Part shown: in pieces, positions 58,815 through 63,049 of the stretch | Position numbering within the stretch: the first letter of the stretch is position 1 | Layout: each line of letters starts with the position of its first letter | Source: Bacteroidota bacterium | Lineage (GTDB): Bacteria; Bacteroidota; Bacteroidia; Palsa-965 | Assembly: GCA_006218065.1 (NCBI GenBank) | Contig: VBWE01000014.1 | Span: 65,618 to 129,617, forward strand | DNA length: 64,000 nt | Reading direction: 5' to 3' | The notes under the pieces: generated by a model | What the model was told of the DNA's origin: nothing | Databases searched by the model: none | The model's input: the letters and a program-made list of their open reading frames with translations, nothing else | Translations under genes and position numbers: made by a program

Positions 58815-58849
58815 TTTTAATTATTTGATATTCAATATATTAACATGTA

Positions 58850-58926
58850 AGACAATAAAAATGTTGTCAATTTATTTTTGACAATTAATTCGTTGTCATA
58901 AATTTGTAGCAACAAAATCGTTGTCA
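58850..58926 (+). promoter_or_regulatory. Phased TTGTCA box array (operator candidate)
   Basis: TTGTCA occurs at 58864, 58893 and 58921, and its complement TGACAA at 58879; a weaker AGACAA lies at 58850. Steps between starts are 14, 15, 14 and 28 bp, and orientation alternates at the first four positions. The strongest pair is TTGTCAA, 7-bp spacer, TTGACAA. The array overlaps the -33/-7 region of the ATPase operon, which suggests a repressor or autoregulation site. Confidence 0.5.
58878..58906 (+). promoter_or_regulatory. Promoter of the ATPase pair
   Basis: TTGACA (58878-58883) and TAAATTTG (58899-58906; full -7 match), 15 bp apart; the ATG at 58930 is 23 bp downstream. Embedded in the TTGTCA array. 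Confidence 0.55.
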
Positions 58927-58929
58927 AAA

Positions 58930-60111
58930 ATGGATTGGATAAAACCGAAAACAATTACCGGATCTCCTGCAGAAGGAGATTGCTATCTCAGAAGACAATA
59001 TATAAATGATGAGTTCTGGGAGAAGATACGAAATAACGAACACATTCTTTTTGTAGCTCCACGTCGTGTCGGGAAGTCTTCAGTAATGAAAGACTTGGAG
59101 AACAGCCCGGAAGGTTGTGTTGCCGTGTATCAGAATATTGAATCTGACAGGAATCAACGGGAGTTTTTCAAAAGAATTTTTTTGCTGCTTCTTGATCGAT
59201 TAAAAGGACATAATCGGTTTATCAAACGGGTTGGACAATGGATAAAGCAGAGAGGGATTGGAGAAATATCTGCGGAAGGAATTAAGTTCGAATCAAAAGA
59301 GCTGAGTTATAAAGAAGAGTTGCTTGGATTAATTGAAGAACTTGGGAAAGAAGAAGATTTGCGTATAGTTATGATGCTGGATGAATTTCCTGATGTTATC
59401 CAGGCGATTGCAAAGAATGACGGAGATGAAGCAGCGATAGAAACGCTCAGGACCCTTCGCAAAATCAGGCACGATAAAGAGTTTAAACAGTTTTCTTTTG
59501 TTTTTGCCGGCTCGGTTGGACTTCGTCATGTCGTAGCTACGCTTGACAGGGAGAGCTTAATCAATGATCTTGCTCCTGTTCGTATCGACAAGTTGTCTGA
59601 TCCTGAAGCGCACGAGTTGCTGAACTTGTTGCTGAACGGAGTTACGATGCAAATGGGATTGCAGGAAAGGGATTACCTGCTGGATAAAATTACCTACCTG
59701 CTTCCGTATCACATTCAATTGATGGTAGAGAAATGTGATATCATTCTTTATGTTACAAAAACAACTGTTATTACACGGCAAGATATCGACAAAGCCTTTG
59801 ATGAAGTTATTAAGGAAGGACGAAACTTCAATGATTGGGAAACGCGACTTACAAGATACCTGGTCAAAGAAGATTCAAAGTATTGTATTGAGATATTAAC
59901 CCGAGCCGCACATATTGAAGGATACACAATTCAGGATGCATTTAATCATTCAAAAAAAGCTGCTCCGGTTACCGGGTATAAAGCGTTGCTGGATGATATC
60001 CTTATTAAGGATGGGTACCTGGTCGAAGAAAATGGCAGGTATTTTTTTCTTTCGCCGTTTCTCCGGGAATGGTGGAAAAACAGGCACCCGGAATTTGAAA
60101 TCGAAGACTGA
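58930..60111 (+). CDS. P-loop ATPase (AAA/STAND-like), first gene of pair
   Basis: The 393-aa product has a Walker A motif APRRVGKSSVM (Lys49), Walker B VMMLDEFPDV (Asp151, Glu152), a sensor-type FVFAGSVGLRHV, then a helical lid (ITYLLPYHIQLMVEKCDIIL) and a C-terminal winged-helix-like end: GYKALLDDILIKDGYLVEEN, GRYFFLSPFLREWW. This is the layout of the archaeal-ATPase/MalT-like STAND class. No nuclease, TIR, protease or membrane domain is visible. An alternative TTG start at 58921 is less likely than ATG 58930. Base composition is AT-richer than the flanks. The next ATPase gene starts 6 bp downstream. Confidence 0.85.
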   Translation: MDWIKPKTITGSPAEGDCYLRRQYINDEFWEKIRNNEHILFVAPRRVGKSSVMKDLENSPEGCVAVYQNIESDRNQREFFKRIFLLLLDRLKGHNRFIKRVGQWIKQRGIGEISAEGIKFESKELSYKEELLGLIEELGKEEDLRIVMMLDEFPDVIQAIAKNDGDEAAIETLRTLRKIRHDKEFKQFSFVFAGSVGLRHVVATLDRESLINDLAPVRIDKLSDPEAHELLNLLLNGVTMQMGLQERDYLLDKITYLLPYHIQLMVEKCDIILYVTKTTVITRQDIDKAFDEVIKEGRNFNDWETRLTRYLVKEDSKYCIEILTRAAHIEGYTIQDAFNHSKKAAPVTGYKALLDDILIKDGYLVEENGRYFFLSPFLREWWKNRHPEFEIED

Positions 60112-60117
60112 GAAATC

Positions 60118-62448
60118 ATGAAACCAATTACCTATTATCAAGCCTCGGGGCTGACGGATTTGGAAGTAAAAAGCCAATTTGTCGTCCGGAAAAATGAACT
60201 TGAACGTGTGATCTCGGAGATAAGAAGAGATGACATGAAGGGTTCTATTCAGCACTATATTTTTGTTGGACAACGCGGTAGCGGGAAATCAACATTGCTC
60301 AGGCGAATACAGGCGGAGATAAACACGGACAAAGAATTGAACGAACGGCTCATTGCCATTAACCTGAGTGAAGAACAAGCCGGCATTTACCGTTTGCACG
60401 ATTTGTGGGATCGTGTTTGCCAGGAGCTTCGTATGAACCATAAGATAGAGGTGGAAGAAGTAAAATGGGAGGATTATGAAAATGATCTGACTGATTTTGC
60501 CCGTGCGCTATATAGTGCAATGCAAAAAGGATTGAAAAAAACGGGTAAAAAAATAGTATTGCTGCTTGATAATATCGACCGAATTCTTGAGAGTGTCAAA
60601 GCAAATGACAATCATCTTTTCCGGGAATTACTCATGAATTATAAGGATGTTCGGATTATTGGGGGAAGTACCCGCCTCAGTGAGCATCACTGGAAGTACG
60701 ATCAACCGTTTTATGAATTTTTTAATGTAATACGCCTGGCTCCGTTAACCAAGGAAGAACTGAAAGAGTTGCTGGTGTTCTGGAGTAATTTTCTGAAAGA
60801 ACCAAAGCTGGGCGAATTTGTCTGTAATAATTCCGGGCGTCTTAACGCCTTACGCATTTTAAGCGACGGAATGCCCCGAACCATGCTCAATCTTGTAGAA
60901 CTTATGATAGACCGCCCCGGCCAGCAGGGATATGATTATCTAAGATATATTCTTGATCGCGCTACGCCAGTATACCAGGAACGCCTTGGAATTCTATCTC
61001 CTCTGCATCAAAAAATTGTCCTCGAACTTTCTTTCTTCTGGGACGCGGCCAAGGTTAAAGAATTATCTGAAGCTACACGTATTGAAAGTAAAACATTGTC
61101 TGCCGCATTAGCTCAACTGGTTGAATTACAAATTGTCGATAAAATAAAAGGTAAGGGCAAAAATCTTATGTACATCTTGCGGGAAAGGTTTTTCAATCTT
61201 TGGTTGATTATGACGCAGGGAGGGCCGAAACAAAAGAGTCAGGTGAAATGGCTGACAGTTTTTTTGGAAACCTGGTATAACGAGCAAGAACTAAAAGAAA
61301 TGTATCAAAAATTTATTAATGAAATCGATGGGGGAGTTATTGACCCTGATCGTGCAGTAATCAAAGCCAAGGCATTTGTGCATTTAAAGAACATCTCAAT
61401 CGACGAAAGAGACTTGTTGCTAAGCCGTATACATGAAGTAATTGGTGACAGAAAAGAATACCTGGAACTTTTACCAGCAAAAGCAGCTGACATCATTATG
61501 AATGTTTTTGCTTTAATTGACGCTGAGGCATGGAGTCAGGCGATAGAAGAAATGGAAAAAATAGATCAAGATTTTGAGATGAAATACCATATGATAGGAT
61601 TTTTATTTGAGATGAAAGGTGAAATTGTAGAGGCCGAAAAACTTTATCGAAAAGGAATTAAAAAGAATATTAAAGGCACATTATCGCTGCTTGCAGATAT
61701 TTATAAAAAAGAAGAGCGTTATGAAGATGCCGAAAAATTTTATTTGAAGGCAATTCAGTATAGTGATGTTAAAGGACTCATAGGGATGGGTGAGCTATGC
61801 GAAATAAAAGGTGATGCTACACGAGCGGAGGAATATTATATTCATGCAACGGAAAATGGGAGTGTAATCGCTTTACATGCTCTCGCCGAGTTTTATGCTA
61901 AAAATAAACGTAATGAGGAAGCTGAAAAATATTACTTGCTCGCTATTAAAAAAGGATACATTTTCGGAGCAGGCCCATTAGCATTTTTCTATTTCGATAA
62001 TAATATCAAAAAAGAAAAGGCATATGAGTTAATTGTAGCATATAATTCCCGAAACCAAAGAATATTCGATTATCAATTCTTTTTTTGTGCGGAACAAATT
62101 ATTGCAATTTGGGCTGGATTACCTGAGAAAATCTCTTTGATCGAAAACGAGTTGGGAAGCATTGTTGATAGTAAAAACGAATTTCTTCTCAAATATATTA
62201 TTTCGGAATGTTTAGTTCATAAACAGGCAACTCATGTATGGAATTGGTTTTTAAACCAAGAATTTGGTGAAAAAATCAGAGAAATGCTTCGACTTTTATT
62301 TTTTGTAACGGCACGGTTTATTAATAATAGTGATGCCCAATTAAAAATACTGGCGATTGCTCCTGAACTTATCGAGCCTGTAGATGAGATATATCAGGAT
62401 ATTATCGAACGTCAAGAATTCTACTATGGAAAGAACAAAAACACATAA
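60118..62448 (+). CDS. P-loop ATPase with winged-helix and TPR/Sel1-type C-terminus, second gene of pair
   Basis: The 776-aa product has Walker A VGQRGSGKSTLLRRI (Lys57) and Walker B IVLLLDNIDRIL (Asp151, Asp154), then GSTRLSEHHWKYD, a lid with LVFWSNFLKEPKL, and a winged-helix-like region (about residues 295-365) with HQKIVLELSFFWDAAKVKEL. From about residue 480 come TPR/Sel1-like helices: KYHMIGFLFEMKGEIVEAEK, LSLLADIYKKEERYEDAEKF, LIGMGELCEIKGDATRAEEY and LHALAEFYAKNKRNEEAEKY. The domain order NTPase, winged helix, superstructure-forming repeats is that of STAND proteins, used as sensors in signalling and phage defence. AT-rich, especially in the TPR part. Role not known. Confidence 0.85.
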   Translation: MKPITYYQASGLTDLEVKSQFVVRKNELERVISEIRRDDMKGSIQHYIFVGQRGSGKSTLLRRIQAEINTDKELNERLIAINLSEEQAGIYRLHDLWDRVCQELRMNHKIEVEEVKWEDYENDLTDFARALYSAMQKGLKKTGKKIVLLLDNIDRILESVKANDNHLFRELLMNYKDVRIIGGSTRLSEHHWKYDQPFYEFFNVIRLAPLTKEELKELLVFWSNFLKEPKLGEFVCNNSGRLNALRILSDGMPRTMLNLVELMIDRPGQQGYDYLRYILDRATPVYQERLGILSPLHQKIVLELSFFWDAAKVKELSEATRIESKTLSAALAQLVELQIVDKIKGKGKNLMYILRERFFNLWLIMTQGGPKQKSQVKWLTVFLETWYNEQELKEMYQKFINEIDGGVIDPDRAVIKAKAFVHLKNISIDERDLLLSRIHEVIGDRKEYLELLPAKAADIIMNVFALIDAEAWSQAIEEMEKIDQDFEMKYHMIGFLFEMKGEIVEAEKLYRKGIKKNIKGTLSLLADIYKKEERYEDAEKFYLKAIQYSDVKGLIGMGELCEIKGDATRAEEYYIHATENGSVIALHALAEFYAKNKRNEEAEKYYLLAIKKGYIFGAGPLAFFYFDNNIKKEKAYELIVAYNSRNQRIFDYQFFFCAEQIIAIWAGLPEKISLIENELGSIVDSKNEFLLKYIISECLVHKQATHVWNWFLNQEFGEKIREMLRLLFFVTARFINNSDAQLKILAIAPELIEPVDEIYQDIIERQEFYYGKNKNT

Positions 62449-62563: not shown

Positions 62564-63049
62564 ATGACCGTTGAAGAATTCAACCGCTGTGTTGATGAAC
62601 ATGCCGATAGCCTCTATCGCTTTATCCTGAAAAATGTGAAGGATAAGGACAAGGCGAAGGATATTGTCCAGGACACGTATGAAAAACTGTGGCTGAAAGT
62701 TTCGGATACGGAAGCGAAGAATGCCAGGTCGTATATGTTCACCACCGCGTACCGCACGATGATCGATGCGATCCGGAAGGACAAACGGCAGGGCTCGATT
62801 GAAGAAGCGCCGATGATCGCACTTTCGACGAATAAACAGTACAGCGATCTCAAGGAAATTCTGAATGAAGCGGTATCCAAACTTCCCGAAATGCAGCGGT
62901 CGGTGATCATGCTCCGCGATTACGAAGGATACAGCTACGAAGAAATCGGCGGGATTACCGGGCTGAGTGAATCACAGGTAAAAGTGTACATCTTCAGGGC
63001 GCGGACGTTTTTGAAGAATTATATAGGAAGCATGGACAAAGTGCTTTAA
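62564..63049 (+). CDS. ECF RNA polymerase sigma factor
   Basis: The 161-aa product has region 2 (FNRCVDEHADSLYRFILKNV, KDIVQDTYEKLWLKVSDTE, RSYMFTTAYRTMIDAIRK) and region 4 (LPEMQRSVIMLRDYEGYSYE, EIGGITGLSESQVKVYIFRA, RTFLKNYI) of sigma-70 family ECF factors. It lacks regions 1 and 3, as normal for this group. The gene downstream (5 bp gap) encodes a probable membrane anti-sigma protein. It directs expression of an unknown stress or envelope regulon. Confidence 0.95.
   Translation: MTVEEFNRCVDEHADSLYRFILKNVKDKDKAKDIVQDTYEKLWLKVSDTEAKNARSYMFTTAYRTMIDAIRKDKRQGSIEEAPMIALSTNKQYSDLKEILNEAVSKLPEMQRSVIMLRDYEGYSYEEIGGITGLSESQVKVYIFRARTFLKNYIGSMDKVL

What the first reader, a model, noticed from the sequence alone, without database searches (positions are those of the whole stretch)
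58930..62448. AT-rich two-gene ATPase island resembling STAND sensors, possibly a new defence or signalling system
Two adjacent P-loop NTPases (6 bp apart) with winged-helix regions; the second has TPR/Sel1-like repeats. They sit between GC-richer M16 and sigma-factor genes, and the base composition is clearly lower in GC, as if acquired. STAND NTPases with repeat domains are known sensors in anti-phage systems (Avs and relatives), but neither protein has a recognisable effector. Either the effector domain is unknown, or the pair works as ATPase plus partner on a host process.
Basis: partly seen in the sequence, partly recalled or inferred. Interest (0 to 1): 0.75.

Follow-up and report, generated by a model that had tools for sequence, protein, structure and literature searches.

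The report
Operator-bound paired STAND ATPase sensor module
Two neighbouring ATPase genes form a mobile bacterial module, found across many phyla, that looks like an immune-type receptor: a fixed ATPase core, a fast-changing repeat sensor, no visible effector, and a conserved triple DNA palindrome on its own promoter that the sensor protein probably binds.

Summary
ORF1 (58930-60111) and ORF2 (60118-62448) are adjacent P-loop ATPases in an AT-rich stretch. ORF1 folds like the archaeal ATPases SSO1545 and PABY2304. ORF2 is a STAND protein with a TPR/Sel1 sensor (best fold match PH0952). 345 ORF2 relatives were found; in the 80 fetched loci, spanning many phyla, an ORF1 homologue lies directly upstream almost every time it could be seen. 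No third gene recurs. Presence is patchy (9/197 relatives, 16/79 Chitinophaga, 12/109 Pseudoalteromonas), with empty sites at conserved positions.

Three points were new to me. (1) At orthologous loci ORF1 and the ORF2 core evolve like the flanking genes, but the ORF2 repeat region is usually only about 20-75% identical, even between strains of one species. (2) All 97 promoters examined carry 20-22 bp palindromes (TTGACAATAAATTTATTGTCAA) every 27-28 bp; the window has three, at 58849-58927. (3) A variable base of the half-site tracks ORF2 residue 325, at the start of the predicted recognition helix; that rests on about three independent changes.

Best reading: a self-regulated, DNA-binding two-ATPase receptor of immune or conflict type. 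Moraxella plasmid copies lie in defence islands; most chromosomal copies do not. Target, output and anti-phage activity are untested.

The parts
58849..58870 (.). Operator palindrome O1: AAGACAATAAAAATGTTGTCAA
   Evidence: Motif score 18.2 with a motif trained without Bacteroidota; spacing 29 bp to O2
58878..58899 (.). Operator palindrome O2: TTGACAATTAATTCGTTGTCAT, spanning the -33 to -7 interval of the likely promoter
   Evidence: Best-scoring site in the whole 64 kb on the + strand; score 21.1; the exact spaced pattern has one other hit in the genome, no more than the control
58877..58906 (+). Bacteroidota-type promoter: TTTG (58877-58880), 18 bp, TAAATTTG (58899-58906)
   Evidence: Read from the sequence against the TTTG/TAnnTTTG consensus from general knowledge; not tested
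58906..58927 (.). Operator palindrome O3: GTAGCAACAAAATCGTTGTCAA, ending 2 bp before the start codon
   Evidence: Score 16.2; spacing 28 bp to O2
58930..60111 (+). ORF1: 393-aa ATPase with C-terminal winged helix (SSO1545/PABY2304-like); Walker A APRRVGKS 59056-59079, Walker B DE 59380-59385
   Evidence: (Walker B DE in 74/74 aligned relatives)
60118..62448 (+). ORF2: 776-aa STAND ATPase with winged helix, helical arm and TPR/Sel1 repeats; Walker A 60268-60291, Walker B DN 60568-60573
   Evidence: (Walker B DN in 78/79; ERFFN.W invariant in 79/79)
61000..61179 (+). ORF2 winged helix (residues 295-354); predicted recognition helix 324-336 at 61087-61125, with K325
   Evidence: AlphaFold secondary structure; residue 325 tracks operator half-site base 4
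61405..62262 (+). ORF2 repeat sensor region (about residues 430-715), by comparison with relatives the hypervariable part
   Evidence: inferred for the window's own copy, which has no close relative to compare

Best explanation
The pair is a two-protein receptor of NLR type. ORF2 is the sensor: a STAND ATPase whose C-terminal TPR/Sel1 superhelix binds a variable ligand, most likely a protein of a phage or another invader. ORF1 is a constant partner ATPase (helper or executor). In the resting state ORF2 dimers sit, through their winged helix, on three palindromes that cover the operon's promoter and start codon and keep the operon low. Ligand binding to the repeats changes the nucleotide state of ORF2, loosens the operator complex, raises expression and lets ORF2 assemble with ORF1 into an active complex that stops growth or blocks the invader. 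Shown here by computation: the conserved pair, its patchy distribution, the operator array, the hypervariable repeat region, the different Walker B motifs. Supported but not proven: ORF2 binds the array. Inferred only: repression, ORF1-ORF2 complex, the ligand, the output, and that the role is defence.
For: Pair linked in nearly all loci, often overlapping by a few bases, over many phyla. Fold matches of ORF2: PH0952 STAND-TPR (6mfv), Apaf-1, Avs3, CED-4; of ORF1: SSO1545, PABY2304, then ORC/Cdc6. ORF1 keeps the catalytic Walker B Glu (74/74), ORF2 has Asn there (78/79). Repeat region 34% identical where ORF1, ORF2 core and flanks are 95, 93 and 97% (L157-L159); the same at other orthologous loci and between Moraxella osloensis strains. 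96/99-bp tandem DNA repeats in the sensor of many relatives. Operator array: cross-validated, 51/53 loci of the second group and 44/44 Bacteroidota loci score above the maximum of 835 control promoters. Residue 325 is the best tracker of half-site base 4 among 435 columns of both proteins, phi 0.94. Defence islands around Moraxella plasmid copies.
Against: No effector domain in either protein. Chromosomal neighbours are rarely defence genes. No copy in 50,697 phage records or among viral contigs. Residue 325 changes only about 3 times on the tree, too few for significance, and two loci (L045, L149) break the rule. High pS in the variable region points to allele replacement at least as much as to positive selection on point changes. 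No window-lineage alleles were available.
Confidence: 0.55

Rival explanations
1. An ordinary STAND transcription regulator (MalT, IniR or AfsR type) that reads a host or environmental signal and controls host genes, with autoregulation as a side effect.
For: STAND regulators with TPR-like sensors exist (PMC6468293, PMC5760070, PMC10936776); the pair has its own operators.
Against: The exact spaced half-site pattern O2 occurs only once elsewhere in the window's genome, no more than the control pattern; no adjacent target gene recurs; the fused DNA-binding domain of MalT-type regulators is absent; sensor hypervariability and patchy presence do not suit a metabolic regulator.
Confidence: 0.15
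2. A self/non-self or kin recognition locus, like fungal NLR het genes: cells carrying different sensor alleles recognise each other's DNA or proteins and arrest.
For: Allelic hypervariation at fixed chromosomal positions among housekeeping genes, with repeat-based sensors made of near-identical units, resembles the high-internal-conservation NLRs of Podospora (PMC12222747).
Against: Patchy presence and losses; plasmid copies in defence islands; no secretion or contact system linked.
Confidence: 0.12
3. An addiction or toxin-antitoxin-like cassette: operator-bound ORF2 restrains ORF1 (or the reverse), and loss or disturbance of the complex harms the cell.
For: Two overlapping genes with autoregulatory palindromes, mobile and self-contained.
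Against: Neither protein resembles a toxin; many broken copies with the partner gene still present (L095 IS5 insertion, L138, L150, L154); sensor hypervariability is not expected.
Confidence: 0.1
4. A replication- or transposition-type ATPase pair of a very small mobile element, with the palindrome array as its iteron or end.
For: ORC/Cdc6, RuvB, TnsC and MuB folds are among the matches of ORF1; regular arrays resemble iterons; empty sites L165 and L166 keep intact palindromes without the genes.
Against: No transposase, no matching array at the 3' end (median score -23 downstream against +49 upstream), no target duplication recognised; the array lies exactly on the promoter.
Confidence: 0.06

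Closest known systems
PH0952 and related archaeal STAND proteins with TPR sensors (PDB 6mfv, PMC6468293)
   Same: Closest solved fold of ORF2: nucleotide-binding domain, helical domain, winged helix, arm, TPR sensor.
   Different: [quoted passage not shown] ORF2 has none and is paired with ORF1.
Avs (AVAST) antiviral STAND proteins
   Same: STAND core plus C-terminal repeat sensor; Avs3 is among the fold matches; Avs5 also has TPR/Sel1 sensors (PMC12931631).
   Different: Avs proteins carry an N-terminal effector (nuclease, Sir2 and others); here there is no effector, a second ATPase and a conserved operator array. No Avs profile hit.
SSO1545 and PABY2304 archaeal ATPases (PDB 2fna, 2qen)
   Same: Closest solved folds of ORF1, TM-scores 0.59-0.70, AAA+ core plus winged helix.
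STAND regulators that bind DNA: MalT, IniR (PMC5760070), AfsR (PMC10936776)
   Same: Signal-gated STAND ATPase acting at promoters; IniR's ATPase domain was also compared with SSO1545.
   Different: They use an added DNA-binding domain; here the STAND winged helix itself is the candidate, and the target is the module's own promoter.
Potato NLR Rx1, whose NB-ARC domain binds DNA (PMC4599002)
   Same: A STAND immune receptor related to Cdc6/Orc1 that binds and bends DNA.
   Different: Sequence-specific, palindromic, autoregulatory binding is not described there.
Fungal NLRs with high internal repeat conservation (het-d/het-e, PMC12222747)
   Same: Polymorphic repeat sensor on a constant STAND core, with near-identical repeat units.
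   Different: Eukaryotic, with N-terminal effector domains; no partner ATPase.

Membership tests
STAND NTPase class | P-loop and Walker B with hydrophobic strand | tested here: met
   ORF1 APRRVGK[ST]S with DE 74/74; ORF2 G-x-RG-x-GK[ST]T with DN 78/79
STAND NTPase class | GxP-type motif in the helical domain | tested here: met
   ORF2: G251 79/79, P253 58/79 (Ile, Thr or Val in the rest), R254 79/79; ORF1 has an invariant Pro in LLPYxIQL instead
STAND NTPase class | Winged helix after the ATPase core and repeat sensor after an arm | tested here: met
   ORF2 model and top fold match to a STAND-TPR protein; ORF1 has the winged helix but no sensor
STAND NTPase class | Effector domain at one end | tested here: not met
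   No effector domain in Pfam, PADLOC or NCBIfam scans and no extra N-terminal domain in the models. Usual in the class but, by PMC6468293, only 'generally' present, so class membership rests on the other features
Avs antiviral systems | N-terminal nuclease, Sir2 or other effector fused to STAND | tested here: not met
   not filed as Avs
Avs antiviral systems | Recognition of terminase, portal or other phage protein and cell death | not testable with these tools
   Needs phage challenge
MalT-type STAND regulators | Fused separate DNA-binding effector domain | tested here: not met
   No such domain in either protein
ORC/Cdc6 initiators | AAA+ with winged helix binding repeated DNA sites | tested here: inconclusive
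   Fold similarity and repeated sites, but the Orc1/Cdc6 family models in NCBIfam match far below cut-off
MADS (mad8) | Close match to the mad8 profile and the other mad genes nearby | tested here: not met
   E 0.009 and 7e-5 only; no recurring partner genes

The most novel reading that the evidence does not exclude
A widespread, previously undescribed immune-type system in which an effectorless STAND receptor uses its own winged helix to sit on a phased palindrome array at its promoter, so that DNA is both the safety catch and the assembly platform, while its repeat sensor is swapped between alleles at a fixed locus and a partner ATPase carries out the response.
Probability: 0.35. Interest if true: 0.9.

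Novelty: new variant of a known kind. Interest (0 to 1): 0.72.

Why it matters
If right, it is a common NLR-like receptor module outside known defence catalogues, missed because it rarely sits in defence islands and has no effector domain. It couples a polymorphic sensor to a constant two-ATPase core, as in sensor/helper NLR pairs, and its private operator array gives a direct, cheap readout (promoter reporter, gel shift) for finding the ligand. It would also tie the long-noted ORC/Cdc6 likeness of NLR-type ATPases to an actual sequence-specific DNA contact in bacteria.

Tried and rejected
Plain defence-island reading: rejected as a general rule, since 240 near neighbours of 80 loci gave few PADLOC matches at E<=1e-10, many to generic helicases. 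Low GC as proof of acquisition: weakened, because pair GC tracks host GC. Phage origin: no phage or viral-contig relative. Third gene or hidden effector gene: none recurs. RNA hairpin reading of the palindromes: rejected for O1 and O2, which lie upstream of the likely transcript start. First control set for the operator test was faulty, as it included divergent genes sharing the same promoter; repeated without them. Array at both ends of the pair, as for a transposon: not found. Phylogenetic test of the residue 325-operator link: direction always agrees, but only about 3 independent changes. No close relative of the window's genome carries the same locus, so its own empty site could not be defined.

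Full report
Observation. ORF1 (58930-60111) and ORF2 (60118-62448) lie 6 bp apart on the + strand, between two M16 peptidase genes (to 58814) and an ECF sigma gene (62564-63049). The region is 36-43% GC against about 50% around it. Both carry AAA-type P-loops; ORF2 has TPR matches. PADLOC and NCBIfam give only weak, non-specific matches. The window's genome has one ORF2 copy and one ORF1 copy.

Folds. The ORF1 model (pLDDT 92.3) is an AAA+ core plus winged helix; nearest solved folds are SSO1545 and PABY2304, then ORC/Cdc6. The ORF2 model (pLDDT 90.7) has core, winged helix, helical arm and a TPR-like superhelix; nearest are PH0952 STAND-TPR, Apaf-1, Avs3 and CED-4. Across relatives ORF1 keeps Walker B Asp-Glu in 74/74 and ORF2 has Asp-Asn in 78/79; Y..ERFFN.W is invariant in ORF2. 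I infer that ORF1 is the hydrolysing member and ORF2 a slow or non-hydrolysing switch.

Distribution. A scan of one genome per species found 345 ORF2 relatives; the 80 fetched span Bacteroidota, Balneolota, Pseudomonadota, Campylobacterota, Clostridia, KSB1, Cloacimonadota and others. An ORF1 homologue lies directly upstream in nearly all of them; the exceptions are mostly contig ends. No third gene recurs. Presence is patchy: 7/99 and 9/197 relatives, 12/109 Pseudoalteromonas, 16/79 Chitinophaga, some genomes with two or three copies. In eight Chitinophaga the pair sits between rsmB-like and GNAT or mnmA-like genes; in others those genes adjoin. One such site (L167) keeps a decayed ORF1 start, so losses occur.

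Company. Chromosomal neighbours are mostly housekeeping genes. Moraxella osloensis plasmid copies are different: one lies between a Qat system and a PRTase-CE/ORC-CDC6-like/CARF/methylase operon, another just upstream of an Avs4/PD-Lambda-4-like gene. The two Moraxella alleles share ORF1 (97-100%) and the ORF2 core (87-100%) but only 59-61% in the repeat region.

Hypervariable sensor. At orthologous loci in sister species ORF1 and ORF2 residues 1-400/430 are as conserved as the flanking genes, while the repeat region falls to about 20-75% in most pairs. Examples: L157-L159 flanks 97, ORF1 95, core 93, repeats 34%; L070-L080 flanks mostly 92-97, ORF1 97, core 96, repeats 48%; L034-L027 repeats 39%. 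Synonymous divergence also rises there, often to saturation, so allele replacement is at work besides fast protein change. In many relatives the repeats are 96- or 99-bp tandem DNA units, up to 95% identical, a ready source of variation. The window's own copy shows no such DNA repeats and has no near relative to compare.

Operator array. Upstream of ORF1 all 97 loci examined share palindromes with consensus TTGACAATAAATTTATTGTCAA. Direct self-match peaks sharply at lags of 27 and 28 bp (8.7 and 4.9 against 0.4 and 0.3 in control promoters), with harmonics at 54-56. With a motif trained on Bacteroidota loci, 51 of 53 loci of the second group (mostly other phyla, a few Bacteroidota) exceed the best of 835 control promoters and all exceed the 99th percentile; in reverse, 44 of 44 exceed the best control. 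In the window the sites are 58849-58870, 58878-58899 and 58906-58927, covering a Bacteroidota-type promoter and ending 2 bp before the ATG. The exact O2 half-site pattern occurs once elsewhere in the genome, no more than the control. Since only the two genes travel with the array, one of them is the likely binder.

Which protein binds. Half-site base 4 varies between loci while the palindrome is kept. Of 435 columns of both proteins tested as two-state traits, ORF2 residue 325 tracks it best (phi 0.94): Lys with A in 70 of 71, Asn or Ser with C in 10 of 10, Asn or Arg with G in 11 of 13. Residue 325 is the second residue of the predicted recognition helix (324-336). The tree shows only about three changes of residue 325, so this is a strong hint and not a proof. 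Direct DNA contact by STAND or ORC-like ATPases has precedent (Rx1, PMC4599002).

Interpretation. The pieces fit a two-protein, NLR-like receptor that controls its own promoter. The role in defence is favoured by the variable sensor, patchy presence, frequent broken copies and the plasmid islands, but no experiment supports it yet. The eight literature searches and the papers read did not describe such a pair; the library holds open-licence papers only and no bioRxiv library, so prior description elsewhere is possible.

Noticed in passing
L165:1444-1492, L166:1444-1492 (Chitinophaga sites without the genes): Near-perfect operator palindromes persist at 27-bp spacing although both genes are gone, while more distant empty sites have none: recent deletion, or a separate role of the array.
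   Followed up: partly
L098, L095, L096 (Moraxella osloensis plasmids): Defence islands around the pair: Qat, PRTase-CE with ORC-CDC6-like, triple CARF and N6-methylase, and an Avs4/PD-Lambda-4-like protein with an NPHP3_N protein next to it. In L095 an IS5 element has replaced the start of ORF1.
   Followed up: partly
L097 (Agrobacterium plasmid), L100 (Sphingobium plasmid): ORF2 cousins (about 25% identity) without ORF1, next to cyclase genes (Pycsar effector in L100), AbiE genes and a Tn3 transposase.
   Followed up: no
L138, L150, L154, L145: Broken copies: split ORF2, stop codons or truncation in ORF1.
   Followed up: no
L146 and L147 (one genome, two contigs): Two identical 20-kb copies of the locus, probably an assembly duplication.
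   Followed up: no
L061 versus L077 (Pseudoalteromonas): The pair has much lower synonymous divergence than its flanks, suggesting recent exchange between species at a fixed locus.
   Followed up: no
L099:6995-9042 (Segatella copri plasmid): A distant ORF1 homologue followed by a short ATP-binding gene, near WYL and DUF262 genes and IS elements, without the operator array.
   Followed up: no
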